DNA of 64,000 nt from Bacteroidia bacterium (lineage in GTDB: Bacteria > Bacteroidota > Bacteroidia > Bacteroidales > Prolixibacteraceae): assembly GCA_026391315.1 (NCBI GenBank), contig JAPLDT010000099.1:26706-90705 (forward strand), given 5' to 3'. The position numbers and the translations under genes were made by a program. How positions within the stretch are numbered: the stretch's first letter is position 1; every line of letters starts with the position of its first letter. The notes beneath the pieces were generated by a model. That model was not told the origin of the DNA and did no database searches. It saw nothing but the letters and a program-made list of their open reading frames with translations. Below are positions 4,235 to 59,885 of the stretch, one piece after another.

Positions 4235-4265
4235 CTGATAAATCGATAAACTGATACTTCTGATA

Positions 4266-7835: not shown

Positions 7836-8040
7836 AGAACTCAGAACTCACAAGGGTTGAGCTGTTTATTAATTATTTGAATAAATTGACAGTTCCTGAA
7901 CATAACCTACTTTAATTTGTTAAATTCATAGTTTTCAATTCAACCAGGTTCAAACTTACTTCAAACGAAAAAAAAATATTTAATGTACTGGTTGTCATTA
8001 TATTAAAATTAGAAAGAAATATTATTTAAACCTCTTTTTC
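7836..8040. other. AT-rich intergenic region
   Basis: The 205 bases between the transferase and the UDP-glucose dehydrogenase gene hold no open frame of note. The sequence is AT-rich toward its right end and probably carries the promoter for the next gene, but no convincing -33/-7 pair was found. No strong hairpin terminator was seen after the transferase gene. Confidence 0.4.
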
Positions 8041-14950: not shown

Positions 14951-14969
14951 ACGCTAAAACAGCTTTACC

Positions 14970-16841: not shown

Positions 16842-16855
16842 CTAATCCTAAAAAA

Positions 16856-20032: not shown

Positions 20033-20044
20033 TTGAAAACCATT

Positions 20045-21853
20045 ATGAAGACAAAAATAATTTTACTATTAGGAGGTATACTGGCAGTGTTCGGATACAG
20101 TTCATGTACGAAGTACCTGGATGCCTACCCCAACGGCGACAAGTCGTCAGAAGAGATCTTCCAGTACCAGGATATGGTGCAGGGGCTAGTTGGGCAATGT
20201 TATGACAATATGCCAAGAAGTTATAACGACAATGAAGGTGTCCAACTCGATTGGGCCACAGATGATGCTGTTTCTACCAGTCCGACCCAGGCAACCAGAC
20301 GTTTGGCTGTTGGCTCGCTAACAACAGGAAGTGACCCGTTCTCAACCTACTGGACCCGCGATTACAACTCCATCAAGCTAGTTAACATGTTTCTGAAAGA
20401 CCGGCGTGGTTTCAATACCAAATTTATCGTAACAGCCCGCTGGGACAGTTTGGTACGTTACCGCCTGCAGGGTGAAGCCTTTGCACTGCGTGCCTGGTTT
20501 CACTGGGATCTGCTTCAAAAATTTGCCGGAAAAGGTATCAACGGTGGTAAGATGCTTGGAATACCATTGGTTCTTGAACCAATCGACATCACCAAAGAAG
20601 TCAACCTGCCGCGCAATACCTACGATGAGTGTGTGAAACAGATTATTGCGGATTGCGACTCGGCATACAAATATCTTCCGATTGCACACCGCGACTTCCT
20701 TGTTCCAAATGCCTCTGACCGCGTATATGCCGGTGGCCGCTATTGGGGTAAACTGGATGGTATCACCGCCAGGGCCATCAAATCGAATGTATATCTGACC
20801 TGGGCAAGCCCAAGGTTCAATCCGGCCAACGATGTTTCAAGGTGGGACAGCGCCGCAGCCAATGCCAAGAAGGTGATCGATTTCAAATTGAAAATTGACA
20901 ATGTATCCGGTGGTTTTAATCCGGCAAACGCCATCAACTGGTTCGATCCCAACTCTCCTGAAATAGTTTGGTCTGCGCGCTTTCAGGGTACCAACGATGC
21001 CATGGAGCGTATGTTCTATCCGGGAGGATTTCAAGGAAATGGTGTGATTGGAGCAACCCAGGAACTGGTCAACACCTTCCCGATGGCCAATGGTTATCCT
21101 ATCACGGATGCGAGAAGCAAGTACGACATTAACAATCCGTACGCCAACCGCGATCCAAGGTTCTACAGCAATATTTTCTACACCAATGTACAAGCGAAGA
21201 AGAACAATACCGGTGTCTTAATGTACACGTTTGAAAACTGGGTCAATGGCGGTAAAGATGCTGCTGGTGTCAAGCCCACCAACAGCCTTACCAACTACCA
21301 CATCAAGAAGAATGTCTACATGGGACTCAACTGGTCGGATGCATCCATAACCAGGGTATCGCATACCAAAATGTTCATCCGGTGGACTCACATGGTGCTG
21401 AACTTTGCCGAAGCGGCCAACAAGGTTGTTGGTCCCAATGATGCAAGTAAATACGGTTTGTCGGCCAAAGCAGCCATGCAATACATCAGAACCAGAAAGA
21501 CCTATGACGGTGCGACCATGTACACAGCCGCCAATGATCTCTATCTGAACGAGGTTGCCGGTGATGCCACAAAGTTTGATAATTTTGTGAAAGATGAACG
21601 AAGAATTGAGACCTGCTTCGAAGGAATGAGGTTTTACGATCTTCGCCGCTGGACAACCAGCCTTACCGAACTGAACAAATCGGTTCACATGGCAGAGATC
21701 ACAAAAAATGCCGACGGCACCACATTTTCCTACGTACTGGACAAAGAAGCAGAATCTCGTGCATACAAATCCGCATACCTGCCAATTCCTTATGTGGAAA
21801 TATTAAGGATGAGCAAACTGGAGCAGAATGAAGGCTGGGACGGTTGGAAATAA
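20045..21853 (+). CDS. SusD/RagB-like lipoprotein (second pair)
   Basis: The listed TTG start at 20033 overlaps the preceding stop region; the ATG at 20045 (MKTKIILLLGGILAVFGYSSC) gives a clean lipoprotein signal ending YSSC. The roughly 602-aa product carries the SusD N-terminal motif SSEEIFQYQDMVQGLV and the C-terminal hallmark KDERRIETCFEGMRFYDLRRW. It is the surface binding partner of the divergent SusC encoded upstream. Confidence 0.93.
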   Translation: MKTKIILLLGGILAVFGYSSCTKYLDAYPNGDKSSEEIFQYQDMVQGLVGQCYDNMPRSYNDNEGVQLDWATDDAVSTSPTQATRRLAVGSLTTGSDPFSTYWTRDYNSIKLVNMFLKDRRGFNTKFIVTARWDSLVRYRLQGEAFALRAWFHWDLLQKFAGKGINGGKMLGIPLVLEPIDITKEVNLPRNTYDECVKQIIADCDSAYKYLPIAHRDFLVPNASDRVYAGGRYWGKLDGITARAIKSNVYLTWASPRFNPANDVSRWDSAAANAKKVIDFKLKIDNVSGGFNPANAINWFDPNSPEIVWSARFQGTNDAMERMFYPGGFQGNGVIGATQELVNTFPMANGYPITDARSKYDINNPYANRDPRFYSNIFYTNVQAKKNNTGVLMYTFENWVNGGKDAAGVKPTNSLTNYHIKKNVYMGLNWSDASITRVSHTKMFIRWTHMVLNFAEAANKVVGPNDASKYGLSAKAAMQYIRTRKTYDGATMYTAANDLYLNEVAGDATKFDNFVKDERRIETCFEGMRFYDLRRWTTSLTELNKSVHMAEITKNADGTTFSYVLDKEAESRAYKSAYLPIPYVEILRMSKLEQNEGWDGWK

Positions 21854-21870
21854 TTAAATACTAGACAGAT

Positions 21871-22842
21871 ATGAAAAAGATAGGAATTGTTTTAATGCTC
21901 GTTGCAGTCATGGTATCATGCTACAACGATTACATCAGCGATTTTGATTACAATGGAATCTACTTTCCTTACCAGACGGATGTTCGCAGCTTTGTGGTTG
22001 GAGAGGGGATGAAAATTGAGATTGGCGCTGCATTGGGAGGTGTTCGCGAGAATACCAAAGACCGTCAGGTTACCTTTTCGCTCGACAACAGTCTGGCCAA
22101 TGCGGCTACACTAACACTGATGAAAGGCGGAGCCCAGTACATCAAGGATGCGGTTGCTCCTGTGACTGCGCTGACTCCCATTCCAACCAGCTATTATACC
22201 CTGAGCGACAACAGCAAAATGATCATCAAAGCTGGTCAACACATGGGCTCGGTGGTAATGAGAATCGACTCGGCTAAATTCCTGGCCGATCCGAATACCC
22301 TGTTCGCCAATTACGTGATCCCGTTTTACATGGTCAGCGCTGATGCGGATACCATCCTGTCTACCAAAAGGACAGCTGTTATTGGTCTGAAGTATGAAAA
22401 CATGCTCTTTGGAAAATACTGGCATGGAGGGGTAACTACCGTGAAAGACGCATCCGGAAATACCATTCAAACCCTTGTTTATTACACTGCGGTAAACCAG
22501 CCTGAAAACAAAGTCTGGACATTGACTACTGTGGCCCCAAACGCACTTTTGGCCAATGGGTATAGTGATCAGACCACTTCAAAAGGTGAAATGAGGTTAA
22601 CCCTGGATGGCACCAACATCACTGTTACTACCAATGCCGGGTCGACCAATGTGGTTACAGCGGATGGAGCAAGCACTTTCAATCGGGCTAAATTGCTCCA
22701 AAACAGGAAGATTCTGCTCAATTACAAGTACATCAATGCAGCCGGCAATACCTGTTATGCCAAAGACACCCTTACCTTCCGCAACCGGATCAGGGATGGC
22801 GTAAACGAATGGCAGGACGAAAATCCGGCTAATTACAAGTAA
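21871..22842 (+). CDS. DUF1735/DUF4361-type surface lipoprotein
   Basis: The 323-aa protein has a lipoprotein signal (AVMVSC) and an N-terminal BT_3987-like domain (YNGIYFPYQTDVRSFVVGEG, IEIGAALGGVRENTKDRQVTF), followed by a C-terminal lipocalin-like region starting near GKYWHGGVTTVKDASG. Such proteins are usual third members of SusCD operons and are thought to bind glycans at the surface. It is the last gene of the five-gene run, and its TAA lies inside a large bidirectional terminator. Confidence 0.85.
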   Translation: MKKIGIVLMLVAVMVSCYNDYISDFDYNGIYFPYQTDVRSFVVGEGMKIEIGAALGGVRENTKDRQVTFSLDNSLANAATLTLMKGGAQYIKDAVAPVTALTPIPTSYYTLSDNSKMIIKAGQHMGSVVMRIDSAKFLADPNTLFANYVIPFYMVSADADTILSTKRTAVIGLKYENMLFGKYWHGGVTTVKDASGNTIQTLVYYTAVNQPENKVWTLTTVAPNALLANGYSDQTTSKGEMRLTLDGTNITVTTNAGSTNVVTADGASTFNRAKLLQNRKILLNYKYINAAGNTCYAKDTLTFRNRIRDGVNEWQDENPANYK

Positions 22843-22895
22843 ATTGAACAAATAAAAAATCCGGCTGGCGCCGGATTTTTTATTTGTTCAATTTA
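22840..22895. terminator. Bidirectional terminator with perfect 26-bp arms
   Basis: The arms TAAATTGAACAAATAAAAAA+TCCGGC and their exact complement enclose the tetranucleotide TGGC. The core GC stem is flanked by A- and T-runs in both directions. The left arm includes the stop codon of the lipoprotein gene, and the right arm includes the last codons and the stop of the convergent GH5 gene. Confidence 0.92.
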
Positions 22896-23857
22896 CTTAA
22901 CTTTTCTCTGAGGTATTTTCCAGACTCAGTCAGCTGCTCAATACTCCAGCCGCCTGCAACCGGGGCCCCGGGAAGCATGATGGCCGTGGTTTCATTTTTG
23001 TCAGTCACATTCCAGGCGACCCAGCTTAGCCGGTTGCCCTCCATCCATTCTACCCATCTGTTGCTCTTTTCCAGGTTGAATTCACCATTCCCGTTCGATT
23101 CACCTACCCCCCACTCCGTCACAAATAGTGGCAAACCAAGCTTCATGGCAGCCTCAGCTTTCGCCCGAAGCTTCTCCTGGTGGTTGGGATCTGAGGCATA
23201 GAAATGGAAAGAATAAACCAGGTTGTCGAATCCCCTGATTGGATCAGCCGCCGCCACATCCACATCCTGGTCCCACTTTGGGGAACCAACCACAATGATG
23301 TTTTTCTTATCATATTGCCGGATGGTTTTGATCACTTCAACAGAATAACCTTTTACCATTTCCCAGTTTTGCCTGGCCGGTTCATTGAAGATTTCATAGA
23401 TGACATTTGGCACACCGGAATATTTCTGTGCCATCAGGGCAAAAAATGCCTTCGACTCTTCCAGATGTTTCTCGGCATTGTGGTCGTGCCAGTCTACAAG
23501 CACATAAATGCCCTCAGAGATGGCTTTATCGATCACAATGGTCATCAGCCTTAACTGTTCTTCATTGTTGGCTAAATAGCCTCCTTTGGGTTCCACTCCC
23601 ATCGATGCCCGCAACAATGAAATATGGAAATCTTTGACAAGCCAGCTTACCACTTCCGGATTGTAGTATTTTTTCCCTTGCCACAGGCTCCATGACAAGG
23701 ATATCCCCCTCAACTGCGGAGGCAAACCACCTTTACCGACCATTTGATTGCCCTCCACCTGAAGTGCACCATTCAATTCGACAGGAGATTTAGGCTGTTG
23801 AGCCATTAAGCAGGAACCACAAAGCAACATCCCCGCTGCCAGTATTGATATTTTCAT
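22880..23857 (-). CDS. Glycoside hydrolase family 5 (GH5_2-like) endo-beta-glucanase or mannanase
   Basis: The 325-aa protein has a signal peptide (LLCGSCLMAQ, possibly a lipoprotein) and a single GH5 TIM barrel. The acid/base glutamate is in YEIFNEP (E159) and the nucleophile in FVTEWGV (E248). RGISLSWSLW and VDWHDH are typical of cellulase-like GH5 members. It lies 11 nt downstream of the hybrid regulator on the same strand, so the two are likely co-transcribed. Beside a GH26 gene it probably attacks a beta-1,4-linked glucan, mannan or glucomannan; GH5 substrate specificity cannot be fixed by eye. Confidence 0.92.
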   Translation of the reverse strand: MKISILAAGMLLCGSCLMAQQPKSPVELNGALQVEGNQMVGKGGLPPQLRGISLSWSLWQGKKYYNPEVVSWLVKDFHISLLRASMGVEPKGGYLANNEEQLRLMTIVIDKAISEGIYVLVDWHDHNAEKHLEESKAFFALMAQKYSGVPNVIYEIFNEPARQNWEMVKGYSVEVIKTIRQYDKKNIIVVGSPKWDQDVDVAAADPIRGFDNLVYSFHFYASDPNHQEKLRAKAEAAMKLGLPLFVTEWGVGESNGNGEFNLEKSNRWVEWMEGNRLSWVAWNVTDKNETTAIMLPGAPVAGGWSIEQLTESGKYLREKLSKLNK

Positions 23858-23868
23858 TTTATAACTGA

Positions 23869-26800
23869 TTAATTTTTGATGTATCTTGAAGGAATGACAC
23901 CGAACTCATTTTTAAAATGCTTGCTGAAATATTTCGGATCATTGAACCCAACCTGAAATGCTATTTCCGACACATTCAGCTGGCTTTTGGAAAGCAGAAG
24001 GGCAGCCCTTTTTAACCTCATTGAACGGAGAAACTCTAAGGGTGGTTTACCAGTCAATGCCAAAATTTTCTTATAGAGCAGGGTTCTGCTCATACCCAAA
24101 TCGTGACTCATCATTTCAATTGAATATTCAGTATTGGCTATATTCTTTTCAACCAGATCAAGAACTTTGTGCATAAATAGTTCGTCCAGAGAGGTAACGG
24201 TGATATCTTTGGGTTCAATTTGCAGCTTGTTTTTGAAGACTGTCCTTAAATTGTGCCTCAAAGAAAGAATGTTGTTAATTTTAGCCTCAAGTATTTGAAA
24301 ATTAAACGGTTTTATAATGTAGTCATCCGCACCCATCTCAATTCCTTTCAGCTGTTGCTCCTCCGATGATTTGGCAGTTAAAAGGATAAGTGGAATATGG
24401 CATACACTCTTGTCCGTTTTAATTCTTTCGCACAACTCCAGGCCGTCCATTCCTGGCATCATAATATCGCTGATAATCAAATCCGGCACATATTTCAATA
24501 CCAACTCCAGGGCAGCATTACCATTCGAAGCTTCAAGAACTTCAAACTGACCATGCAAATTGTCCTTCAGATAAAAACGAAGATCATCATTATCCTCGGC
24601 AATCAGGATCACAGACCTTCCGCTTACAATGGGTTTCTGATCATTATCAATAGCTATGATCGGTCTATTCCTTATCTCTTCCAAAGGCTGTCCCAGTGCC
24701 TCGATCACCATTCCTGACGCATTTACCGCCAATTTTACCGTAAAGCAACTGCCTTTACCTATTTCGCTTTTGACGGCGATCTCCCCACCATGAAGTTTGA
24801 CAAATTCAGCGACCAGGGAGAGACCAATGCCTGTACCCTTTTCGACCAGACCCGTTGTATCCACCTGAAAAAAACGTGTGAAAATTTTATCCAGTTTGTC
24901 TTCAGGTATTCCGATCCCGGTATCAGCTACCTCAATGATCAGAACGGTTGCTGAGTCTGCGCTATTGTACGTGCTTCCATTCGTTTCAACAGATAGTGTT
25001 ACAGACACCTGGCCGTTGCCGGGAGTGAATTTAAAAGCATTGGAAAGCAGATTAAAGATTATTTTTTCCAACTTATCCTTGTCAAAATAAGTATTAAGTT
25101 CCCTGATTCCGGATGTAAAGAGCAGTTTAATATGTTTTTGTTCGCTTAGGTAATTGAAGGAAAATACTGACTCTCTGATAAATGAGACAATATCACCGAA
25201 AAAAGGATCGTAATTGAACCCCTGTACTTCCATTTTTCTAAAGTCGAGCAACTGATTGACCATTTGCAGCAGCCTTCTGGCATTCTGATCAACAATCTTT
25301 AAATACTTACCCTCCGGCTTTTCATTCAAGGTCAACAACAGCTTATCCACAGGACCCATGATCAGCGTCAGAGGTGTTCTGAATTCATGGGAAATATTTG
25401 TAAAAAATTTAATTTTCAATGAGTCTATCTCATGAATATGCTGGGCCTCAATTCGTTCATGCTCGATACGTGTATTGGTTCTTTCGTTGACCAATATTAA
25501 TCGGCGTAGGAGTAGCAAGACCAGTAAAATGAAGACGGTATACGAAAGATAAGCAAGCAAACTTTTCCAGAATGGCGGGAGAACTACAATAATCATCGAG
25601 ATCTCTTTCCCTGTAGCGTTTTCATTCAGTTCTTTTACCCTAAAAGTGTATGTACCATTATTCAGGTTGGTATAGGTTGCTGAATTATTTTTCCCCGTAG
25701 TAGTAATCCACTGTTTATCAAACCCATCCAATTTATAAGAGTAAATATTTTTTTCAGGAAAAAAATAATTGAGTGCAGTAAATTCAATCGTAAAGGAATT
25801 TTCAACGTATTTTAATGCGATCTTCTCAGTATTAAAAATTGGCTTTTCTAGAAGAATCCGGTTGTTGTATTTCTGTCCGTAATCAATGCTTTTGTTGAAA
25901 ATCTTTAAATCCCTGAAGATCATTTTTGAGACAGAACTATCCGATTTTATTTCGTCCGGATAAAAGGCATTGAGGCCATCCGGGCCTCCAAAAAAAATCT
26001 CGCCATCTGAGGTGCAAAGGGCCGACGAACGGTTAAACTCTTTCCCCTGAAGACCATCTGTGATATCGTAGTTATGAAATTTAAAATCAAAACTGCTTTC
26101 ATTTTTAACATTTGTCAATTCCATTCTGGAAATTCCATTCTTCGAACTGATCCAAAGGTTTCGGCGCTTGTCCTCCACAATTCCGTGCACACTGTTTGAT
26201 GGCAGTCCGTCCCTGACCATAAAATGTCTAAAAGTGCCATTGTTTCTTGAGAACAGGTTAAGACCATTCTTGGTACAAATCCAGAAAAATCCTCTACTGT
26301 CTTCGAAACAGTTGATCACATTGTTGTCGCTGATAGAATTACTATCATTCTCCTGACTTTGGAAGGTTTTAAATGAATTGTTCCTGTAATTGTATGCAGA
26401 CAAACCATATTCTGTAGTTAACCACAAAATATCGAATTTGTCGCGATAGACAGAGGTAATCATGTCGTAGCAAAGGGAGCTATTTTTTGCAGTGAAGTAG
26501 TCCAATTTTCCTGTCTTTGGATTCAGACGGTTGATCCCGTTACCCCAGGTTCCAGCCCAAATATTGTTTTTCTCATCTTCACAGATTCCATAGATTCTGT
26601 CATCCGAAATCGAAGTAGTGTCTTCCGATTTATGTTTGTAAACCGTGAATTTACTGGTTATAGGATCATATTTGTTCAAACCCCCAAAATAAGTTCCGAC
26701 CCACAATTTTTTAAGGTAATCCATGTAGAGTGAAACAATGATGTTGCTACTTAAAGTATTGTTTGATAAATTATTATGAATAATTCTGGTAATTTTTTGT

Positions 26801-28059
26801 ATTTTTCGTTCCAGGTAATTGAGTCCACCTCCATCGGTACCAATCCAGATATTGCCTTTCTCATCTTCTACCAGCGCATTTACATCATTGTTGCTTATAC
26901 TATTGAGATCGCCTGACAAGTTTTTGTATATCCTAAATTTGTTGATATTCTTTTTATAATAATTAACTCCCTTTTTGGTCGTTCCAAACCAAACAATTCC
27001 ATCGTTGTCGCAGTAAACAAACGAAAGGCCATCTGATGAAAGTTTCTGCTCATCAAAAGGTTGATGTTTTAAGTTTGTGACATCCCTGGTTTTTTTGTTG
27101 AAGATAAACGCACCGCCCCCATCAGTAGCCACCCAAATTAAGCCATCAGTATTCTGGGAAATTGCCCCGATCCTTTTTAATCTGTCAGTCTCATCTGTTT
27201 TATCTTTAAAATGGTTTTCCCATCTTTCTTTGATTGTATCGAAAAAATATAGTCCAAACAAATTGCCAACCCATAGATCGTTATCAAGATCGACAAATAG
27301 TCTGGTAACACTATAGGCCAATTTGTCAGATTCGTCTGGGATTTTGAAATTTTTCATTCTCCGGCTTTGCGGGTTATATTTGATCAGATAGTCGTTTTTA
27401 GTACCTATCCACATGTTTCCGGTATGATCCTGGACTATAGAACTAATACTATTGAGAGGAGAATTACAGTTTGAGTCATCGATTAATATCCGTTGGATAG
27501 AACCGCGATTGATATCGTTATAAAAGATTCCATTGTTGGTACCAATCCAAATATTTCCATCATGATCTGTAGCCAACGCATTGATATAATAAATGTCACC
27601 GCAGTTAAACGGGGACAAAAAACGATAATCAAAATCCCTGAATTGATACGTTTGACTATTGAGGATACTAACTCCATTGGCAGTTCCAATCCAAAGGTTC
27701 CCTCTTTTATCTTCTGTAATGGCATTAATAGTGTTACTCTTTAACGAACCATTGTCAGACTTATCATTTGTAAAAACCTCAAAATCTGAACCATCAAACC
27801 TATTAAGTCCGGCATTAGTACCAAACCAAACAAATCCTTTGGAGTCGCGATAAATACAATTAATTTGATTTTGAGATAACCCGTTGTTCACATTTAAATG
27901 TGAAAATACATAACGATTTTCCTGACAAAACAGCTTGTTAACTGCCGCCTGAAATATCAAAATTAAGGACAGCGTAATTAAATATCTGCACAGTACAGAC
28001 CTTTGCGGGCTATATAATTTCAGTTTGATCCACCCGATCCTTGAAGCACATTTTCTCAC
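23869..28059 (-). CDS. Hybrid two-component system sensor-regulator (HTCS) of the polysaccharide locus
   Basis: One protein of about 1396 aa holds, in order, a signal/anchor segment, two blocks of two-component propeller repeats (many WIGT.GGL motifs), a Y_Y_Y domain (YSYKLDGFDKQW), a transmembrane helix (LLAYLSYTVFILLVLLLLRR), a histidine kinase (NISHEFRTPLTLIMG and KIIFNLLSNAFKFTP), a receiver (DIMMPGMDG) and an AraC DNA-binding domain (VSEIAFQVGFNDPKYFSKHF). The periplasmic propellers would sense an oligosaccharide and drive susCD expression. The ORF track starts at a GTG (28257) with an implausible Cys-rich leader that has no methionine; the in-frame GTG at 28059 (VRKCASRIGW...) precedes a normal hydrophobic signal and is preferred, though not proven. 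Confidence 0.93.
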   Translation of the reverse strand: MRKCASRIGWIKLKLYSPQRSVLCRYLITLSLILIFQAAVNKLFCQENRYVFSHLNVNNGLSQNQINCIYRDSKGFVWFGTNAGLNRFDGSDFEVFTNDKSDNGSLKSNTINAITEDKRGNLWIGTANGVSILNSQTYQFRDFDYRFLSPFNCGDIYYINALATDHDGNIWIGTNNGIFYNDINRGSIQRILIDDSNCNSPLNSISSIVQDHTGNMWIGTKNDYLIKYNPQSRRMKNFKIPDESDKLAYSVTRLFVDLDNDLWVGNLFGLYFFDTIKERWENHFKDKTDETDRLKRIGAISQNTDGLIWVATDGGGAFIFNKKTRDVTNLKHQPFDEQKLSSDGLSFVYCDNDGIVWFGTTKKGVNYYKKNINKFRIYKNLSGDLNSISNNDVNALVEDEKGNIWIGTDGGGLNYLERKIQKITRIIHNNLSNNTLSSNIIVSLYMDYLKKLWVGTYFGGLNKYDPITSKFTVYKHKSEDTTSISDDRIYGICEDEKNNIWAGTWGNGINRLNPKTGKLDYFTAKNSSLCYDMITSVYRDKFDILWLTTEYGLSAYNYRNNSFKTFQSQENDSNSISDNNVINCFEDSRGFFWICTKNGLNLFSRNNGTFRHFMVRDGLPSNSVHGIVEDKRRNLWISSKNGISRMELTNVKNESSFDFKFHNYDITDGLQGKEFNRSSALCTSDGEIFFGGPDGLNAFYPDEIKSDSSVSKMIFRDLKIFNKSIDYGQKYNNRILLEKPIFNTEKIALKYVENSFTIEFTALNYFFPEKNIYSYKLDGFDKQWITTTGKNNSATYTNLNNGTYTFRVKELNENATGKEISMIIVVLPPFWKSLLAYLSYTVFILLVLLLLRRLILVNERTNTRIEHERIEAQHIHEIDSLKIKFFTNISHEFRTPLTLIMGPVDKLLLTLNEKPEGKYLKIVDQNARRLLQMVNQLLDFRKMEVQGFNYDPFFGDIVSFIRESVFSFNYLSEQKHIKLLFTSGIRELNTYFDKDKLEKIIFNLLSNAFKFTPGNGQVSVTLSVETNGSTYNSADSATVLIIEVADTGIGIPEDKLDKIFTRFFQVDTTGLVEKGTGIGLSLVAEFVKLHGGEIAVKSEIGKGSCFTVKLAVNASGMVIEALGQPLEEIRNRPIIAIDNDQKPIVSGRSVILIAEDNDDLRFYLKDNLHGQFEVLEASNGNAALELVLKYVPDLIISDIMMPGMDGLELCERIKTDKSVCHIPLILLTAKSSEEQQLKGIEMGADDYIIKPFNFQILEAKINNILSLRHNLRTVFKNKLQIEPKDITVTSLDELFMHKVLDLVEKNIANTEYSIEMMSHDLGMSRTLLYKKILALTGKPPLEFLRSMRLKRAALLLSKSQLNVSEIAFQVGFNDPKYFSKHFKNEFGVIPSRYIKN

Positions 28060-28343
28060 TGTTATTAAGGGTACAAAAGTTATTGTCAGTCGGGAATACT
28101 TACGAATAAGACACCTCCAGAAATCTTTGCAAGTAAAGATATAAAAAGAATAAGCAAAGTACCCATAAAAACACTTTGTAAACAAACTATTACCTAATCT
28201 GCAACAAATGCCCCCCCATGCAGAACATTCGGTTACCCTTTCAAGAACAATCCTCACCCCTATTTGGTAGTGAAACAGGTACTTTTGTTAAAATGTTTTA
28301 ACACTTTTCTGATCAAACTACAGAAAATTTCACATTTGTTTTT
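28060..28343. promoter_or_regulatory. Regulatory region between HTCS and the third susC, with TACTTTTG element
   Basis: This divergent spacer holds a plus-strand TACTTTTG at 28280-28287, which fits the Bacteroidota -7 consensus TAnnTTTG. A matching -33 TTTG at the usual distance is not present. It would place transcription start just before the 30-codon ORF at 28344. The HTCS regulator, read outward from this region, is expected to bind here. Confidence 0.35.
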
Positions 28344-28436
28344 ATGAAGAACAAAAAACACGCTTACCTGCTCATCGAAGGTCTGATATACCTGATACTA
28401 ATTATCGCTATACTAATATTAATCAGCAACTTATGA
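28344..28436 (+). CDS. Possible 30-aa single-pass membrane peptide (not in ORF track)
   Basis: An ATG-initiated frame encodes MKNKKHAYLL followed by a continuous hydrophobic stretch (IYLILIIAILILI) and ends ISNL before TGA. A lysine-rich start plus about 18 hydrophobic residues is the look of a real small membrane protein. It lies 74 nt before the third susC and downstream of a TACTTTTG element. It could also be chance in AT-rich DNA. Confidence 0.35.
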   Translation: MKNKKHAYLLIEGLIYLILIIAILILISNL

Positions 28437-28509
28437 ATTAATGATTTTTCTATGACTAACAAAAAACTGAATTTCCAAAGACGAAGTATTAACAATTTAT
28501 CTAAAATCT

Positions 28510-31500
28510 ATGAAAATTAAACTGATTTTTCTTTCCCTATTAATTTTCTTGTCCATGGGAGCATGGGCACAGATAAAAATCACCGGCAAAGTTATGGACT
28601 CTGATAATTCAGAGACTTTGCCAGGGGTAAACGTTCTTGTTAAAGGCGACAAAGGTATTGCCACCGGTACGGTCACCGATGCAGAGGGCCGTTTTACCAT
28701 TACGGTTCCCACCGAACAGAGTACGCTTGTCTTTTCCTTTATCGGTTTCTTGCCACAGGAGGTTGTAGTTGGGAAGCAAACCTTTTTGAATATACAGCTA
28801 AAACTGATGGTAAAGGGACTGGACGAAGTAGTTGTTATCGGGTACGGAACGACCAAACGATCAAATCTTACCACGGCACAGACTACTATTACTGCGAAAG
28901 AAATTGAAAAAACAGTCAACACTACAATTGAACAAGCCCTTCAGGGAAGGACCGCAGGAGTATACGTTACGCAAAATACGGGTCAACCGGGTGGTGCCAT
29001 TTCGGTAAACATCAGGGGTGTCAATTCAATTAACGGCACCAATGAACCACTCTATGTGATCGACGGAGTACAAATACCGGGGCAATCCATATCGTTTGGT
29101 GCGACAAGCTCATCTAATCCGCTTTCCGGATTAAACCCATCGGATATCGAAGATTTTCAGGTATTGCAAGGTCCTTCAGCGACTGCACTCTTTGGTTCAC
29201 GTGCAACCAATGGCGTTATTTTAATCACAACCAAACGCGGGAAAGAGGGTTTTACAAACATATCTTATAACTTCCAATACAATATTCAAACACCGCCCAA
29301 GCATTTGAAAGTTATGGATCTGCCTGAATATGCCCAAATGGTCAAGGAATTTCATGCCATTCAGGGAGGAGCTACGCCTTCTGAATTCCTGGATCCATCG
29401 TTGTTAGGACCGGGAACAGATTGGCAGAAAGAATTATTCAACAATTCAGCCATGAAAAAACACCAGGTAAATATGAGCGGAGGGAACAATAAGACAACTT
29501 ATTATTTATCGGGTGAATATTTAACCCAGGATGGTGTGGCTGCCGGTTCAGGTTTTGACCGGTACAGTTTCAGGTTAAACCTCGACAACAAACCAAGGGA
29601 CTGGTTTAAAGTCGCAACAAGCCTGAACTTCAACCAAACCAAAGAAAACCTGACAACCAGCCAGGAGAACCTTATTTCAAACGGATTGCAGCTGACACCG
29701 CAGATTCCGGTTAAGAATCTGGATGGCACATGGGGAGGAGGCGACCTTACCAACGGAGCCAACTTATATGCACCGGTCAACCCGATCGCTATATCTAATT
29801 TAGTAACAAACAATAATTTAAGAAGGCAATTTGTCGGAAGTCTGAATCTGGATTTCATTCTTAATAAAAATTTGGTTTTCAGGACAGCCTTGAATACCAA
29901 CGTTGGCTATTCCAATGGAATTTATTATGTTCCCACTTATTCAATCGGATGGGCAAAAAATACAATAGCCACTTTATCTGATTCGAACGGAATGAATGCT
30001 TATTGGAACTGGAATCAAATGCTGGATTACAATAAATTGTTTGGAGATCATTCCCTTAACGTCAAATTGATCCATGAATCCCAATCATCCACATGGAAAA
30101 ATACAAGTTCAGGCAGGTCAGGTTTTCTTACCAGCGATATTCTGGACCTCAATGCGGGTGATCCCACAACTGCATCCAACTCAGGCGGCCAAGGCCAATG
30201 GGCGATGGAATCCTATCTCGGAATGCTGAACTACAACTACCGTGACCGTTACATCTTAGCCGGATCTGTCCGTCGCGACGGCTCCTCCAATTTTGGACCG
30301 GATAACCGTTGGGGAACTTTCCCTGCTATGTCAGTTGCATGGAGAATTTCAAAAGAAAATTTCTTTAAAGTTGCTGCAATCAATGAATTAAAGCTGCGCT
30401 TCGAAGTTGGAACAACCGGTAACCAGGGAGGTGGCGGCATCTATTCCCCAATGGCTACAGGTGCTACACAATGGGGTACCGGATTTTTACCAGCCCAGTA
30501 CAGTAATCCGGCATTAAAATGGGAGCAAACCACGACCGTCGATGGCGGTTTTAACCTCTCTCTGCTTAAGAACAGGATTCAGCTTGAATTCGACTATTTC
30601 CAAAAGAAAACCAGCAATCTTTTGATGTCCAACCCATTGCCCTATTACATGGGAACCAATGGTCAGGGGGCTGTTTCTTCACCAACAGTCAATATTGGTG
30701 CGCTGCAAAACAATGGTTGGGGGTTTACTATCATTACCACCAACATCAATACCAAAAATTTCAAGTGGGATTCAAATCTTAATATTTCAGGGGTAAAAAC
30801 AAAAATTACGAAATTCTATTCCGACGCGGCAATTGTCGACCGTACTTCCTGGTGGATGAACAGCTGGACCCAAAGATCAGTAGTAGGCATGGCGCCATGG
30901 CAGTTTCTGGGCTATATTGAAGAGGGCCTGTTCAAAACAGTCGATGAGATCAATAACAGTGCTGTACCCGTTGACAACAACGGCAAGAGGCTGCCTACCA
31001 ATGTTAACAACATTTGGGTTGGCGATGTTAAATACAGGGATATCAGCGGACCCGACGGAGTACCGGATGGGAAAATTGACATCAATGACCAGACATTCAT
31101 CGGAAATCCATGGCCTAAATTCTATGGCGGTTTCACCAATACATTCACTTACAAAGGTATAGAATGCAGCGTACTGTTAACTTTCACCTATGGGAATGAT
31201 ATTTACAACTATTTAGCCATGGTAAACTCAAATCCCAATAACATTAATCTCAGCCGTAACATGCTGATTACGGCGATGGATTACGCCAAACCAACTACCT
31301 TACCGGACGGATCGGTAGGATTGGCAAATCCTGAAACCAATGTTCCGAGACTTTCTTATGGTCCAAACGGAAATCAGTCAAGGTTCACATCCAAATGGGT
31401 AGTAGACGGATCGTTTTTGAGGGTTAAGAACATTTCTTTGGCTTATAATCTGCCTTCTTCATTACTTTCCAGGCAAAAAGTAGTCAACAATGTCAAAGTG

Positions 31501-31671
31501 ATGGTTAGCGCACAAAATATTGCCACCATTACCGGTTACAAAGGATATGATCCTGAAGTCGGTGCGTATGTAGGAAGGGATGCTAGTTCGGGTAACCAGG
31601 CACAGGGTGTTGACTATGGAAGGTATCCGCTTACACCTGTTTATACTTTTAATTTACTGATTAACTTTTAA
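28510..31671 (+). CDS. SusC-like TonB-dependent transporter (third pair)
   Basis: The 1053-aa protein has a signal peptide ending GAWAQ, a carboxypeptidase-regulatory-like domain (ITGKVMDSDNSETLPGVNVL), the TonB-box-like stretch LDEVVVIGYGTTKRSN, a standard plug (QVLQGPSATALFGSRATNGV) and a beta-barrel ending VYTFNLLINF. It is the first gene of a six-gene plus-strand run to 39.2 kb that includes a GH26, so it most likely imports mannan-type oligosaccharides. Confidence 0.95.
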   Translation: MKIKLIFLSLLIFLSMGAWAQIKITGKVMDSDNSETLPGVNVLVKGDKGIATGTVTDAEGRFTITVPTEQSTLVFSFIGFLPQEVVVGKQTFLNIQLKLMVKGLDEVVVIGYGTTKRSNLTTAQTTITAKEIEKTVNTTIEQALQGRTAGVYVTQNTGQPGGAISVNIRGVNSINGTNEPLYVIDGVQIPGQSISFGATSSSNPLSGLNPSDIEDFQVLQGPSATALFGSRATNGVILITTKRGKEGFTNISYNFQYNIQTPPKHLKVMDLPEYAQMVKEFHAIQGGATPSEFLDPSLLGPGTDWQKELFNNSAMKKHQVNMSGGNNKTTYYLSGEYLTQDGVAAGSGFDRYSFRLNLDNKPRDWFKVATSLNFNQTKENLTTSQENLISNGLQLTPQIPVKNLDGTWGGGDLTNGANLYAPVNPIAISNLVTNNNLRRQFVGSLNLDFILNKNLVFRTALNTNVGYSNGIYYVPTYSIGWAKNTIATLSDSNGMNAYWNWNQMLDYNKLFGDHSLNVKLIHESQSSTWKNTSSGRSGFLTSDILDLNAGDPTTASNSGGQGQWAMESYLGMLNYNYRDRYILAGSVRRDGSSNFGPDNRWGTFPAMSVAWRISKENFFKVAAINELKLRFEVGTTGNQGGGGIYSPMATGATQWGTGFLPAQYSNPALKWEQTTTVDGGFNLSLLKNRIQLEFDYFQKKTSNLLMSNPLPYYMGTNGQGAVSSPTVNIGALQNNGWGFTIITTNINTKNFKWDSNLNISGVKTKITKFYSDAAIVDRTSWWMNSWTQRSVVGMAPWQFLGYIEEGLFKTVDEINNSAVPVDNNGKRLPTNVNNIWVGDVKYRDISGPDGVPDGKIDINDQTFIGNPWPKFYGGFTNTFTYKGIECSVLLTFTYGNDIYNYLAMVNSNPNNINLSRNMLITAMDYAKPTTLPDGSVGLANPETNVPRLSYGPNGNQSRFTSKWVVDGSFLRVKNISLAYNLPSSLLSRQKVVNNVKVMVSAQNIATITGYKGYDPEVGAYVGRDASSGNQAQGVDYGRYPLTPVYTFNLLINF

Positions 31672-50875: not shown

Positions 50876-51316
50876 CTACCCAATCTTTAATTTGTAATTT
50901 GTAATTGTTTTGATCAGCCCTTCACATGCATCTTCCAGTATATCAATCACTAATTCATAATCCTTGTTGTCACCATAGTACGGATCTGGAACCGAAGAAA
51001 CCTTAATTCTCGTACAAAATTCTGTCATTTTCCGGATTTTTGCCTTGGCTTTTGCATCAGGAGCCATCCTGGTAAGGTCGGCAATGTTTTGATCATCCAT
51101 CCCAATAAGGAGATCGAACTCCTCAAAATCGCGCTTCGGCCTGACAGGCCTTGAAATGGATGTGAGATCGTAACCTCTTCTCAAAGCAATCTTCTTCATT
51201 TTTGGATAGGCTCCCTCCCCTTCGTGGTAACCAATTTTCCAAAATCAGGTGGTTGAAAATCCCCTCAGCTGCAGGTGAGCGGCATATGTTGCCCAGACAA
51301 ACAAATAAGATCCTCA
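50876..51316 (-). pseudogene. Low-molecular-weight protein tyrosine phosphatase, broken by an internal out-of-frame deletion
   Basis: Reading the minus strand from ATG at 51316 gives MRILFVCLGNICRSPAAEGI, the intact CxGNxCRSP active-site loop of the LMW-PTP family. After NHLILEN the frame leaves the family. A second frame picks up at GYHEGEGAYPKMKKIALRRG (from about 51235) and continues to the general-acid motif DPYYGDNKDY and a TAG at 50876. In intact members about 14-18 residues with DSAGT lie between the two parts; they are missing here, so this looks like an out-of-frame deletion rather than a single-base error. Neither half should be active. Confidence 0.85.
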
Positions 51317-56073: not shown

Positions 56074-56232
56074 TTATGCAAATTTAAAGTTGGATTTTAA
56101 ATTTGCATAAAAAATGATGCTTTCAAATTGGATTTTATGCATCCCTAAAGCACGATCCCCAGCCCTTCGTGTTGCTCCATCCGCCTGTTATTCTAATTAT
56201 TTTTTTTGATTCACTACCTAAAACTGTAAATT

Positions 56233-56248
56233 GTATCACAAAAGATAC
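56233..56248. promoter_or_regulatory. HipB-type operator O1, GTATC-N6-GATAC
   Basis: The site GTATCACAAAAGATAC is a perfect 5-bp inverted repeat with a 6-nt spacer. Its half-site TATC matches the HipB operator type TATCC-N8-GGATA known from Escherichia coli, but with a shorter spacer. It lies 80 bp before hipB and recurs at 56295. Confidence 0.6.
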
Positions 56249-56294
56249 CATTTACTTGCTTTTCGATGAAATATATCCTAATTTTATCAAATAA

Positions 56295-56308
56295 TATCAT
56301 TTATGATA
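56295..56308. promoter_or_regulatory. HipB-type operator O2, TATC-N6-GATA
   Basis: TATCATTTATGATA has the same half-sites and the same 6-nt spacer as O1, with centres 61 bp apart, and ends 19 bp before the hipB ATG. Two matching sites suggest co-operative autorepression. Confidence 0.6.
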
Positions 56309-56327
56309 CAAGTTAATCTTGTAAATT

Positions 56328-56540
56328 ATGACAAACGAAGAGCTAATTCAAACAATAAAAGCCAGAAAAAATATCCTGTCAGTAAACCAGGAGTACTTGG
56401 CTGAGCTTTCCGGGGTTGGAATTGCAACCTTAAAACGGTTCGAAAGTGGCAAAGGGAATGTCACTTTAAAAAATCTGCAGAAAATTACAGATGTATTGGG
56501 CCTTGAAGTGAAACTCGAACTTAAAAAAACCGGTAAATGA
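56328..56540 (+). CDS. hipB: HipB-like antitoxin/repressor, HTH-XRE
   Basis: The 70-aa protein is a single Xre helix-turn-helix (NQEYLAELSGVGIATLKRFE, then LKNLQKITDVLGLEVKLEL), typical of HipB proteins that repress their own operon through TATC-type operators. Two such inverted repeats lie just upstream. Its TGA overlaps the ATG of the next gene, so the proteins are translationally coupled. Confidence 0.88.
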   Translation: MTNEELIQTIKARKNILSVNQEYLAELSGVGIATLKRFESGKGNVTLKNLQKITDVLGLEVKLELKKTGK

Positions 56541-56860
56541 GAAGCGCTGAAGTTTATAGGAACGGTATTTTAGCTGGCACATTAACCAAAATCAACAGTC
56601 GTTCCTACAAGTTCACCTACGGTTCCGGGTATTTCTCCGATTATTCAAAACCGCCAATTAGCCTGACACTGCCAAAAAATCAATTGGTGCACACTTCTGA
56701 ATATTTATTCCCCTGCTTCTACAATATGCTATCGGAAGGAACCAACAGGGAAATTCAAATGAGATTATTGAAAATTGACAAGAACGATTTCTTTGGCCTC
56801 CTGTTGGCCACTGCCCGATACGATACCATCGGCGCAATAACAATTAAGCCGATTAAATAG
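56537..56860 (+). CDS. hipS: HipS-like protein, free-standing HipA N-terminal subdomain
   Basis: The 107-aa protein matches only the N-terminal subdomain of HipA (RNGILAGTLTKI, FTYGSGYFSDYSKPPISLTLP, FPCFYNMLSEG). In tripartite HipBST systems this separate subunit, about the same size, is the antitoxin that inhibits the kinase HipT. The order B-S-T and the short gap to the kinase gene (9 nt) agree with this. Function as antitoxin is inferred from the family, not shown here. Confidence 0.8.
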   Translation: MRSAEVYRNGILAGTLTKINSRSYKFTYGSGYFSDYSKPPISLTLPKNQLVHTSEYLFPCFYNMLSEGTNREIQMRLLKIDKNDFFGLLLATARYDTIGAITIKPIK

Positions 56861-56869
56861 AAAGGACCG

Positions 56870-57880
56870 ATGATGGAAATAAAATATTGTCCCGGATTGC
56901 TCCTGGAGGGACATTCCGGATATAGCCCACTATTTTTGCATAGGATGTTTTCCGGGCGGAAGGTCAGCCACGTCTTGCCCTACAACGCCCCTGAAATGGA
57001 TGAAGAAGACCAAAAGAAGTTCATGCAAAACAGGAAAAGAATTTCAATTTCGGGTATGCAGGAGAAATATTCCGTACTGCTTGAAAAAAACAGCCTTCGA
57101 TTGACCGTTGAAGGGGAACAGGGTTCCTATATTCTCAAACCAAAGCCTCATGGTCTACAAAAAATCGCTATGGCCCCGGCAAATGAGCATGTAACCATGC
57201 AAATAGCCAGTCAGATATATAATATTCCGACTGCTGTAAATGGATTGGTGTTTTTCAGCAATGACGAACCTGCCTATCTGACCAAACGATTTGACATAGA
57301 TATCCATGGGACAAAACTTGGGAAAGAAGACTTTGCAACACTAGCCGAAAAAACAGAAGAAAATGCAGGTGTAAATTTCAGGTATGAATATTCTTACGAA
57401 GGTATTGCCGAATTAATAAAAAGATACGTCGGGGCATGGCAAATTGAAATGGAGAAATTTTACCGTCTGGTAATTTTTAACTTTCTGTTTTCCAATGGGG
57501 ATGCCCATTTGAAGAATTTCTCCTTGCTGGAAACCGCGAATGGCGACTATGTTTTAAGCCCGGCTTATGACCTGATGGATACCCGGATCCACGTTGACGA
57601 AGAAGGCTTTTTCGCTTTGAGTGACGAACTCTTTAAGGATGGGTACTGGTCGGATTGCAGAATTAAAAATTCGCTGCATCATCCATGCAAGGAGGATTTT
57701 ACTGAATTCGGGAAGAAAATCGGAATAGAAGAAAAAAGGGTCGGTAAACTGCTTGTTCCTTTTCTGAAAGAACAAACCGGGGTTGGAAATTTAGTGAAGA
57801 AATCGTTTCTTGATCAGGAAACCCGGGAACTGTACCTGAATCATTACCATGAACGGTTAGGGATGTTGAATTTAGGTTGA
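56870..57880 (+). CDS. hipT: HipT-like serine/threonine kinase toxin
   Basis: The 336-aa protein is the HipA-like kinase core without the N-terminal subdomain. An SIS motif (RISISGMQ, S59 and S61) lies in the glycine-rich loop region and matches the autophosphorylation site described for E. coli O127 HipT at S57/S59. The catalytic motif NGDAHLKNFSLL and the metal-binding AYDLMDT are intact. HipT proteins inhibit translation by phosphorylating an aminoacyl-tRNA synthetase (TrpS in E. coli); the target here is unknown. The start may be the second ATG at 56873. Confidence 0.85.
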   Translation: MMEIKYCPGLLLEGHSGYSPLFLHRMFSGRKVSHVLPYNAPEMDEEDQKKFMQNRKRISISGMQEKYSVLLEKNSLRLTVEGEQGSYILKPKPHGLQKIAMAPANEHVTMQIASQIYNIPTAVNGLVFFSNDEPAYLTKRFDIDIHGTKLGKEDFATLAEKTEENAGVNFRYEYSYEGIAELIKRYVGAWQIEMEKFYRLVIFNFLFSNGDAHLKNFSLLETANGDYVLSPAYDLMDTRIHVDEEGFFALSDELFKDGYWSDCRIKNSLHHPCKEDFTEFGKKIGIEEKRVGKLLVPFLKEQTGVGNLVKKSFLDQETRELYLNHYHERLGMLNLG

Positions 57881-58014
57881 TTACCGAACATGCTCAAATC
57901 TTCGGGTTTGAAAACCTTACTTTTCGGCTCAACCTTAGTAGAAAGGTTAACAGACAGAATATTAACCTTATTACCTTATAAAAGTGTTGTTAAAATACAT
58001 TTATATCAAGATAA

Positions 58015-58284
58015 AAGTGTAATGAAATCTTTACCGAGTTTAAAGGGGAAAACGAATTGGAATTCAGGCTAACAACTGAGACACTGTTGATTACCTACAG
58101 CGATATTTTCACCAAAGCAGCCCTTTCCCGAATCACCGGGATCAACCAGTGCCAACTCTGACACTATGCCTCAGGGATGCGCAAACCACGGCCTGCACAG
58201 CGCAAAAGAATTGAAGAGGGGTTGCATAAATTGGGAGCAGAGTTGCTGAGAATTGGGATAAAAGGGAATTTGTATGGACATTGA
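58015..58284 (+). pseudogene. Remnant of a HicB-like antitoxin (HTH type) with internal TGA
   Basis: In one frame the DNA reads KCNEIFTEFKGENELEFRLT, then DIFTKAALSRITGINQCQL-stop-HYASGMRKPRPAQRKRIEEG, and ends LYGH before TGA. This resembles the C-terminal helix-turn-helix half of HicB-like antitoxins in Bacteroidota (typical GINxxQLSHYASGxRKPRPAQ). The in-frame TGA at 58159 replaces what is normally a serine codon, and a TAA lies just before the first residue. No partner hicA was found. Confidence 0.65.
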
Positions 58285-58302
58285 TTGCAAATAAGCGCCT
58301 CC

Positions 58303-58335
58303 GGGGGAGCCTGTTTACAGCTCTCCTTTCTTTTT
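58303..58335 (+). terminator. Possible terminator after the HicB relic
   Basis: GGGGGAGCCTGTTTACAGCTCTCC can fold into an imperfect hairpin (GGAG...CTG/CAG...CTCC with one bulge) and is followed by TTTCTTTTT. Fold stability was not calculated. Confidence 0.35.
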
Positions 58336-58435
58336 AAATATGTTAATAACTTTTATGTTAATTCGTTACAGTAGTCACAAATTTTATATAATTTTGGTTT
58401 AGTACTTGAATGTTAAATAATTAAATCAAAATGAT

Positions 58436-59158
58436 ATGTTCAAGATTTTAAAAAATTCAATTAATTTGTTTGGTAAGAAATACAAAGAAGGGGGTTTATT
58501 CCAGTTTTTAGTGAATTTGTTTTCACCTCTTTATTTAGCGATAATAATAGTAGTACTGAACTTTTTTTTTGATGTTTTCTTAAATTTAAGTGTTAACTTT
58601 AAAAATACCTATTACACATTTGTATCGGCAAATGTCAATTTTACTGAACATGTTATAGCAATATTAATTATTGCTTTTGCTGCAATTGGTTGCTATTTTG
58701 TTTACAGTTATATTAACGAGGCTTATATAAATGTGAGAAAAATGCTTTTAGAAAGTCTTGAAAAAATCTCTACTGCCCGAAATGAATTTCATAATAAAAA
58801 GCAAGAACCCCAACCTAATATAGACTTGTCTGATGAGGAATTTTTACTAGAGTTAGGAAGGGTTGAAACTAATGTGCAAAAAAAGCTTTCAAAGTGGAAT
58901 AACAAAAGGTACTTGTTTAATGGGGTGTATGCTCTTGCTATTGTTTTACCAGTATATTTATTACTTATAGTACTCATTTCAAATTCAATAAGTAATAAGA
59001 ATCTAATCTTCAAACTTCAAACCACAATTTTATTACCGTACATCGGACAGGATGAAGTAAACAAGCTAAACTCTTCTTGGGCTTTAATGAGGAATGAAAC
59101 CGATTACATTAAAATTAATACTCAGATTGAAGAGGCTAAAAAGAAGTATTTACCCTGA
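58436..59158 (+). CDS. AT-rich hypothetical membrane protein
   Basis: The 240-aa protein has three predicted transmembrane segments (about 29-50, 72-94 and 166-186). A cytoplasmic, charged region lies between the second and third (VRKMLLESLEKISTARNEF...LLELGRVETNVQKKLSKW), and a charged tail follows. No family was recognised. The codon use is visibly more AT-rich than in neighbours, and the gene sits between two toxin-antitoxin modules, which suggests recent acquisition. A role in defence is possible but is only inferred from position. Confidence 0.55.
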   Translation: MFKILKNSINLFGKKYKEGGLFQFLVNLFSPLYLAIIIVVLNFFFDVFLNLSVNFKNTYYTFVSANVNFTEHVIAILIIAFAAIGCYFVYSYINEAYINVRKMLLESLEKISTARNEFHNKKQEPQPNIDLSDEEFLLELGRVETNVQKKLSKWNNKRYLFNGVYALAIVLPVYLLLIVLISNSISNKNLIFKLQTTILLPYIGQDEVNKLNSSWALMRNETDYIKINTQIEEAKKKYLP

Positions 59159-59269
59159 ATATAGCCCGCCCTCTAGCCTACCGGCTTGTTATAATTCATT
59201 TGCACTGACGCATTGTTTGCACTTTTCAATATAAAATTTTCGTACCTTGCAAATTGAAAATGAAGCAAA

Positions 59270-59482
59270 ATGAGAACCACTGAATTGATAAAAGAAATTG
59301 AAAAACTACCTGTTCAGAAGCGAATTTTCGTCATTGAAAGGACGCTTCAATCAATTAGAAGAAATGAAGAAAATTCTCAAATGAAAAAGGCCGCGGAACT
59401 GTTATATCATGATTATACCAATGATTCTGAATTGACAGTTTTTTCTGATCTTGATTATGCCGAATTTTATGAAACAAGGTGA
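59270..59482 (+). CDS. MazE-like/prevent-host-death-type antitoxin
   Basis: The 70-aa protein (MRTTELIKEIEKLPVQKRIFVIER...) begins with a short helical domain and ends with a charged, less ordered tail (DLDYAEFYETR), as in antitoxins that pair with PemK/MazF toxins. Its stop lies inside the start of the toxin gene. A TACCTTGC element at 59243, 20 bp before the ATG, could be the -7 promoter box. The antitoxin family itself is not named with certainty. Confidence 0.75.
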   Translation: MRTTELIKEIEKLPVQKRIFVIERTLQSIRRNEENSQMKKAAELLYHDYTNDSELTVFSDLDYAEFYETR

Positions 59483-59816
59483 AATTTGGCTGATCAATTT
59501 GGATCCAACAATTGGAGCAGAGATTAAAAAGACAAGGCCTGCTTTAATTGTCAATGATAATTCACTTGGAAAACTACCATTAAAAGTGATTGTTCCATTA
59601 ACAGATTGGAAAGACAAATACCAATTGGCTCCCTGGATGATAAAATTAATACCGAATAAGCTCAATGGGTTAATCAAAGATTCATCGGCTGATTGTTTTC
59701 AGATACGCTCCGTTTCTGAAACAAGATTTGTAAAAAGGCTTGGCCATGTTGATGAATCATTGATGGATGAAATCAGGAGTGGTCTTTCTAAAGTTTTGTC
59801 TATTAGCGAAGAATAA
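59469..59816 (+). CDS. MazF/PemK-family endoribonuclease toxin
   Basis: The ATG at 59469 (MKQGEIWLINLDPTIG) is preferred over the listed start, since MKQGEIW is the usual family start. The product is about 115 aa. It contains the SH3-like fold signature (GEIWLINLDPTIGAEIKKTRP, CFQIRSVSETRFVKRLG). Such toxins cut mRNA at short specific sites. It overlaps the antitoxin gene by 14 nt, typical of a coupled pair. Confidence 0.9.
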   Translation: MKQGEIWLINLDPTIGAEIKKTRPALIVNDNSLGKLPLKVIVPLTDWKDKYQLAPWMIKLIPNKLNGLIKDSSADCFQIRSVSETRFVKRLGHVDESLMDEIRSGLSKVLSISEE

Positions 59817-59885
59817 ATCAAGGCACTGGCAGTCTTTAGCAACTAATTTTGAACCAATATTTTTCTTTACATTTCCTCGAATTAT

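What the first reader, a model, noticed from the sequence alone, without database searches (positions are those of the whole stretch)
56233..57880. Tripartite HipBST-type toxin-antitoxin operon in a Bacteroidota
Three coupled genes encode a HipB repressor, a free HipA N-subdomain and a HipA-like kinase core lacking that subdomain. The kinase keeps NGDAHLKNF and AYDLMDT and has the SIS autophosphorylation motif at S59/S61, near the S57/S59 positions of E. coli O127 HipT. Splitting of HipA with the small subunit as antitoxin is an established but recent type of system, and Bacteroidota versions are little studied. Its target synthetase may differ.
Basis: partly seen in the sequence, partly recalled or inferred. 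Interest (0 to 1): 0.65.

Follow-up and report, generated by a model that had tools for sequence, protein, structure and literature searches.

The report
Split-kinase HipBST toxin-antitoxin operon (Bacteroidota type)
This is a real, selected three-gene toxin-antitoxin operon of the known HipBST kind, from a Bacteroidota subgroup that differs from the two studied in the laboratory at residues thought to control the toxin, so it is a good but not startling test case.

Summary
In detail: hipB (56328-56540), hipS (56537-56860) and hipT (56870-57880) form one operon. HipS is the HipA N-subdomain alone; HipT is the kinase core alone, with all kinase motifs and SIS at S59/S61. The S-T split is kept in 110 of 110 relatives; dN/dS is 0.05-0.16.

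Both proteins match the Legionella HipBST better. The HipS Trp65 wedge is absent in all relatives. The second Arg of the RxDR phosphoserine site is lost in 99 of 100 relatives but kept in the three other HipT types compared. This is a distinct Bacteroidota HipT type; a near relative of Legionella HipT sits in another genome of the same genus.

New anatomy: two palindromes (GTATC-N6-GATAC type) lie 61 bp apart around a likely promoter; 12 of 13 close loci, the window's included, carry two or three at that spacing. The cassette is mobile: neighbours differ, three same-genus genomes lack the 3.8-kb insert, and relatives sit on plasmids. HipBST homologues in the FCB group are already published. 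Toxicity, antitoxin role and target are untested.

The parts
56233..56248 (.). Operator-like palindrome O2, GTATCACAAAAGATAC
   Evidence: Exact GTATC-N6-GATAC. 13 loci (the window and relatives with HipT more than 70% identical) hold 32 such sites (up to 2 mismatches) against about 1.0 expected in shuffles, at about -94, -33 and -155 from hipB. In the window TATC-N6-GATA occurs 5 times against 0.85 expected.
56256..56286 (+). Likely promoter: TTG, 20-bp spacer, TAATTTTA, lying between the two operators
   Evidence: Direct reading of upstream DNA of close relatives, which keep a TTG and a TA-n-TTT box at this place. The Bacteroidota promoter consensus (TTTG / TAnnTTTG) is from own knowledge; no mapped start site.
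56294..56309 (.). Operator-like palindrome O1, ATATCATTTATGATAC, 61 bp from O2
   Evidence: One mismatch to GTATC-N6-GATAC; 60-62 bp spacing kept in relatives.
56328..56540 (+). hipB, 70-aa Cro/C1-type HTH protein; probable autorepressor
   Evidence: HTH_3 7.7e-10, couple_hipB 4.3e-11 though below its curated cut-off; the recognition-helix region GIATLKRFESGKGN is kept in the clade that has the operators and changed in the clade without them.
56537..56860 (+). hipS, 107-aa free HipA N-subdomain 1; probable antitoxin
   Evidence: Couple_hipA 3.3e-17; PDB HipS_Lp 1.4e-17, HipS_Ec 1.6e-7; modelled part matches 8ezr_A at TM 0.89. Thr69 stands at the place of E. coli Trp65; Glu67, Gly68 and Asn70 are invariant in 100 relatives.
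56870..57880 (+). hipT, 336-aa HipA-like Ser/Thr kinase core without the N-subdomain; probable toxin
   Evidence: HipA_C 2.6e-35; PDB HipT_Lp 4.6e-28, HipT_Ec 4.4e-21; fold match to 7wcf TM 0.85 of target; SIS P-loop, K90, D211, D234 conserved.

Best explanation
It is a HipBST toxin-antitoxin operon. HipT is a HipA-fold Ser/Thr kinase that, when free, stops growth, most likely by phosphorylating an essential translation protein such as an aminoacyl-tRNA synthetase. HipS, the detached lid domain, binds HipT near its glycine-rich loop and keeps it inactive. HipB dimers join the complex and bind two or three evenly spaced GTATC-N6-GATAC operators around the promoter, so the operon represses itself. 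Shown here: gene anatomy, domain identity, kept catalytic residues, family-wide split, purifying selection, conserved operator-like sites, mobility. Inferred from the studied homologues: toxicity, kinase activity, HipS as antitoxin, HipB binding of the palindromes, target class. Because Trp65 and the RxDR arginine are missing, the details of loop control probably differ from E. coli O127.
For: Domains. PDB matches to HipT and HipS of both studied HipBST systems, far above HipA. Split order in 110 of 110 relatives, with hipS-hipT in all three relative frames (0/1/2 = 10/27/73), so the split is genuine. HTH ORF also found upstream in 7 of 8 checked loci where tblastn missed hipB. S-psi-S in 99 of 100, catalytic N-x-D and Mg-binding D kept. 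dN/dS 0.05-0.16. Operators 32 against 1.0 expected, changing together with the HipB recognition-helix region. Folds match HipT (TMt 0.85) and HipS (TMt 0.89). Experimental basis in homologues: PMC10627512, PMC9325769, PMC10653801.
Against: No wet evidence for this operon. The residue essential for HipS neutralisation in E. coli (Trp65) is absent, and one Arg of the proposed phosphoserine site is missing. The modelled HipS-HipT chain did not dock HipS as in HipA (whole-chain rmsd about 21 A), although a short artificial tether and mostly unpaired alignment rows make that test inconclusive.
Confidence: 0.78

Rival explanations
1. HipS is not the antitoxin but an obligatory subunit: HipS plus HipT make a HipA-like kinase and HipB is the antitoxin, as in HipBA.
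For: The Trp65 wedge is absent in the whole clade; HipS+HipT equals HipA in domain content.
Against: Legionella HipS also lacks Trp65 and still neutralises HipT (PMC10653801); in both studied HipBST systems HipS, not HipB, neutralises. HipB is only 70 aa.
Confidence: 0.12
2. The in-frame TAG between hipS and hipT is read through to give a HipA-like fusion, so the 'split' is a recoding or a recent nonsense mutation.
For: In the window hipS and hipT share a frame with one TAG and three codons between them.
Against: Only 10 of 110 relatives share the frame; 73 and 27 lie in the other two frames, many with overlapping genes. HipT has its own start codon after AAAGGACCG.
Confidence: 0.03
3. The operon is an addiction or defence module of a mobile element whose kinase acts during plasmid loss or phage infection rather than as a growth-control switch (a rival about role, compatible with the mechanism above).
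For: 3.8-kb insertion between asmA and an aldo-keto reductase gene that are adjacent in three same-genus genomes; neighbours not shared among relatives; copies on plasmids including a conjugative one; a second toxin-antitoxin pair sits next door.
Against: HipT's best defence-library match is a candidate family, PDC-M03A, at 1.7e-8, and no phage record holds a homologue; no functional data.
Confidence: 0.4
4. A decaying remnant with no activity.
For: A neighbouring HTH reading frame in the same insert carries a stop codon.
Against: All three genes intact with dN/dS 0.05-0.16 and catalytic residues kept.
Confidence: 0.04

Closest known systems
HipBST of Legionella pneumophila (Lpg2368-2370; PDB 7vkb, 7wcf, 8ezr)
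   Same: Gene order, split HipA, no Trp65 in HipS, Asp/Lys pair (D154/K215 here, D145/K201 there), best PDB match for HipT and HipS, multiple evenly spaced operators.
   Different: Only about 27-30% identical in HipT; S-psi-S here, S-psi-Q there; RFDI here, RFDR there; operator sequence and spacing differ (61 bp start to start here, 53-bp gaps there).
HipBST of E. coli O127:H6 (PDB 7ab3-7ab5)
   Same: Gene order, split HipA, SIS P-loop at aligned positions.
   Different: About 24% identical in HipT; HipS Trp65 absent here; RYDR there, RFDI here; NNDMHLRNF there, NGDAHLKNF here; target TrpS not shown here.
S-psi-Q HipT of Bacteroidota (for example locus L141, same genus as the window)
   Same: Split HipS and HipT.
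   Different: Near relative of Legionella HipT (7e-107) with SVQ and RFDR; separate branch from the window type.
HipBA (E. coli K-12; own-genome copy at L171 2319-3855)
   Same: Kinase core, HTH repressor.
   Different: HipA is one chain with its N-subdomain; single P-loop phosphoserine in the E. coli protein; much weaker match (1e-4).
hipJS modules (Gerdes et al. 2021, PMC8262856)
   Same: Short kinase plus HipS.
   Different: There hipS lies downstream of the kinase and there is no hipB; here the order is B-S-T.

Membership tests
HipBST | Three-gene operon hipB-hipS-hipT | tested here: met
   S-T kept in 110 of 110 relatives, HTH ORF upstream in nearly all.
HipBST | HipT lacks the HipA N-subdomain 1 but keeps the Gly-rich loop, catalytic and Mg-binding motifs | tested here: met
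HipBST | HipS is a free HipA N-subdomain 1 | tested here: met
HipBST | Groups with HipT rather than HipA kinases | tested here: met
   PDB ranking and tree: split HipTs on one side of HipAs, support 90/95; the E. coli HipT branch is long, so its exact place is unsure.
HipBST | HipT alone is toxic and HipS neutralises it | not testable with these tools
   Needs an expression assay.
HipBST, E. coli O127 subtype | S-psi-S autophosphorylation motif | tested here: met
   SIS at 59-61; 99 of 100 relatives S-psi-S. Phosphorylation itself not tested.
HipBST, E. coli O127 subtype | HipS Trp65 wedge | tested here: not met
   Thr69 here; A, S, V, E, T or D in nearly all relatives, no Trp in 100.
HipBST, E. 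coli O127 subtype | RxDR phosphoserine-binding motif | tested here: not met
   RFDI here; second Arg present in 1 of 100 relatives; kept in E. coli, S-psi-Q and (S/T)-psi-(T/P) HipTs.
HipBST, Legionella subtype | S-psi-Q P-loop and RFDR | tested here: not met
   near relatives of Legionella HipT with both exist elsewhere in the genus.
HipBA | HipA with N-subdomain and kinase in one chain | tested here: not met

The most novel reading that the evidence does not exclude
The window belongs to a third, undescribed HipBST subfamily of Bacteroidota in which both P-loop serines are kept but the RxDR phosphoserine dock and the HipS Trp wedge are gone, so HipS (perhaps through the invariant E-G-x-N segment) holds the loop in a different way and phosphorylation has a different meaning, possibly with a new target.
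Probability: 0.4. Interest if true: 0.5.

Novelty: new variant of a known kind. Interest (0 to 1): 0.37.

Why it matters
HipBST is known in detail from two gamma-proteobacterial systems that already disagree on how HipS disarms HipT and on what autophosphorylation does. A widespread Bacteroidota subtype (including gut species and plasmids) that keeps the two serines but has lost both the RxDR arginine and the Trp wedge would separate the two proposed roles. The predicted HipB operators and promoter give an immediately testable autoregulation model.

Tried and rejected
Stop-codon readthrough fusion: rejected, frames vary among relatives. Structure of a HipS-HipT complex: no complex prediction is offered, so the chain read through the TAG was folded; the first alignment (A1) misplaced the HipS rows and was not used; two folds (A2, A4) gave confident domains but no HipA-like docking, treated as inconclusive. 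Operator GTATC-N6-GATAC in more distant clades: not found above chance, so the site is clade-specific. Other own-genome copies of the palindrome: 8 exact sites against 2 for a control pattern; the most similar one lies inside a 443-aa ORF, so no second HipB regulon is claimed. Phage records: no homologue. Rfam and tRNA: nothing in the window. The Legionella HipT sequence was not put into the tree because it is a reported injected effector; PDB search scores were used instead. Whether the 48 HipTs of Gerdes 2021 or the 86 HipBST_Lp representatives of Lin 2023 already include this subtype could not be checked, since their tables are in supplements that were not available.

Full report
What is there. 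Three ORFs on the + strand, 56328-56540, 56537-56860 and 56870-57880, encode a 70-aa HTH protein, a 107-aa HipA N-subdomain and a 336-aa HipA kinase core. hipB and hipS overlap by 4 bp; 9 bp separate hipS and hipT. SIS lies at 59-61, NGDAHLKNF at 209, AYDLMDT at 232. Against E. coli O127 HipT, S59/S61 pair with S57/S59 and D211 with the catalytic Asp210.

It is not chance. Searches of 140 genomes of the family and of a collection of bacterial genomes gave 110 usable loci (some loci are the same genome seen twice, 100 distinct full-length HipTs). In all 110 a hipS gene lies directly upstream of hipT, and an HTH ORF lies upstream of hipS in 95 by tblastn and in 7 of 8 checked exceptions. Nei-Gojobori dN/dS between the window and close relatives is 0.05-0.16 for every gene where it could be estimated. 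DNA similarity to other genomes starts near 56214-56244 and ends near 57880, so the conserved unit is the operator region plus hipBST.

Which HipBST. Single-sequence and profile searches of PDB both rank Legionella HipT first (4.6e-28; profile 1.1e-51), then E. coli O127 HipT (4.4e-21; 7.6e-32), then HipA. HipS ranks the same way. A Bacteroidota HipT with SVQ and RFDR from another genome of the same genus (L141) matches Legionella HipT at 7e-107, so the close Legionella relatives in Bacteroidota are a different type. The tree separates window-type (S-psi-S), S-psi-Q and (S/T)-psi-(T/P) HipTs; the window group itself has modest support (71/93) and the E. coli branch is long.

Distinguishing residues. 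Of 100 distinct relatives, 99 have S-psi-S in the P-loop and 99 lack the second Arg of RxDR. That Arg is present in the E. coli, S-psi-Q and (S/T)-psi-(T/P) HipTs compared. The eLife authors propose that RxDR binds phospho-Ser57 and the Q151/R214 site phospho-Ser59 (PMC10627512); here the second site is D154/K215, as in Legionella, while the first is incomplete. In HipS the position of E. coli Trp65, which E. coli HipS needs for neutralisation, is a small or acidic residue in nearly all relatives, never Trp, and the next residue is an invariant Asn. Legionella HipS neutralises without Trp65, so its absence does not refute the antitoxin role.

Control region. Two palindromes, GTATCACAAAAGATAC (56233-56248) and ATATCATTTATGATAC (56294-56309), are 61 bp apart. 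In 13 loci (the window included) with HipT over 70% identical there are 32 such sites against about 1.0 expected; 12 of the 13 have two or three sites at a spacing of 60-62 bp. A promoter-like TTG-N20-TAATTTTA lies between them. Loci whose HipB has a different recognition-helix region lack these sites. Legionella hipBST likewise has three evenly spaced operators. HipB binding is inferred.

Mobility. In three genomes of the same genus asmA and the aldo-keto reductase gene are adjacent (8-55 bp between them by the coordinates); in the window 3.8 kb lies between them, holding hipBST, a broken HTH frame, an unknown ORF and a MazF-like toxin with a small upstream ORF. None of the asmA, unknown, MazF or reductase genes is found beside hipBST in the relatives' loci (some of these loci are short). 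Window-type operons occur on a Runella conjugative plasmid and a Bacteroides thetaiotaomicron plasmid.

Structure. A chain read through the TAG was folded with relatives: pLDDT 94, pTM 0.83. HipT and HipS parts match the solved homologues (TMt 0.85 and 0.89). HipS was not placed as in HipA; with a four-residue artificial tether and mostly unpaired rows this is inconclusive.

Literature. HipBST_Lp homologues in the FCB superphylum are already reported (PMC10653801), and the S-psi-S group is the largest among 48 known HipTs (PMC10627512). The finding is therefore a variant of a known kind. What is added here is the clade-wide RxDR loss with kept serines, the absent Trp with an invariant Asn, the operator set, and the empty site.

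Noticed in passing
window 59270-59816: A second toxin-antitoxin pair in the same insert: 70-aa ORF followed by a PemK/MazF-like toxin (PemK_toxin 1.2e-25).
   Followed up: partly
window 58046-58280: Broken HTH-like reading frame with an internal stop, perhaps a decayed antitoxin; only a weak Pfam match (0.051).
   Followed up: partly
window 58436-59158: 240-aa probable membrane protein with no Pfam match, inside the insert.
   Followed up: no
window 56074-59885: Variable slot between asmA and an aldo-keto reductase gene: empty in three same-genus genomes; in G024 and G026 asmA is followed by a dapB-like gene instead.
   Followed up: yes
L171 2319-3855: Own genome also has a two-gene hipBA (98-aa HTH, 409-aa HipA with RFDR and a GGSSGGTRPK loop).
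   Followed up: partly
L136, L141, L113-L129: At least three HipT types (S-psi-S, S-psi-Q, (S/T)-psi-(T/P)) coexist in one Bacteroidota family, and in the window's own genus.
   Followed up: partly
window 86-9363: Single-module NRPS (C-A-PCP-TE) followed by a glycosyltransferase and a UDP-sugar dehydrogenase gene.
   Followed up: no
window 11726-31668: Two large TonB-dependent receptor genes and a hybrid two-component regulator, as in polysaccharide utilisation loci.
   Followed up: no
window 50879-51199: Low-molecular-weight protein tyrosine phosphatase-like ORF of only 107 aa that matches the C-terminal two thirds of the family.
   Followed up: no
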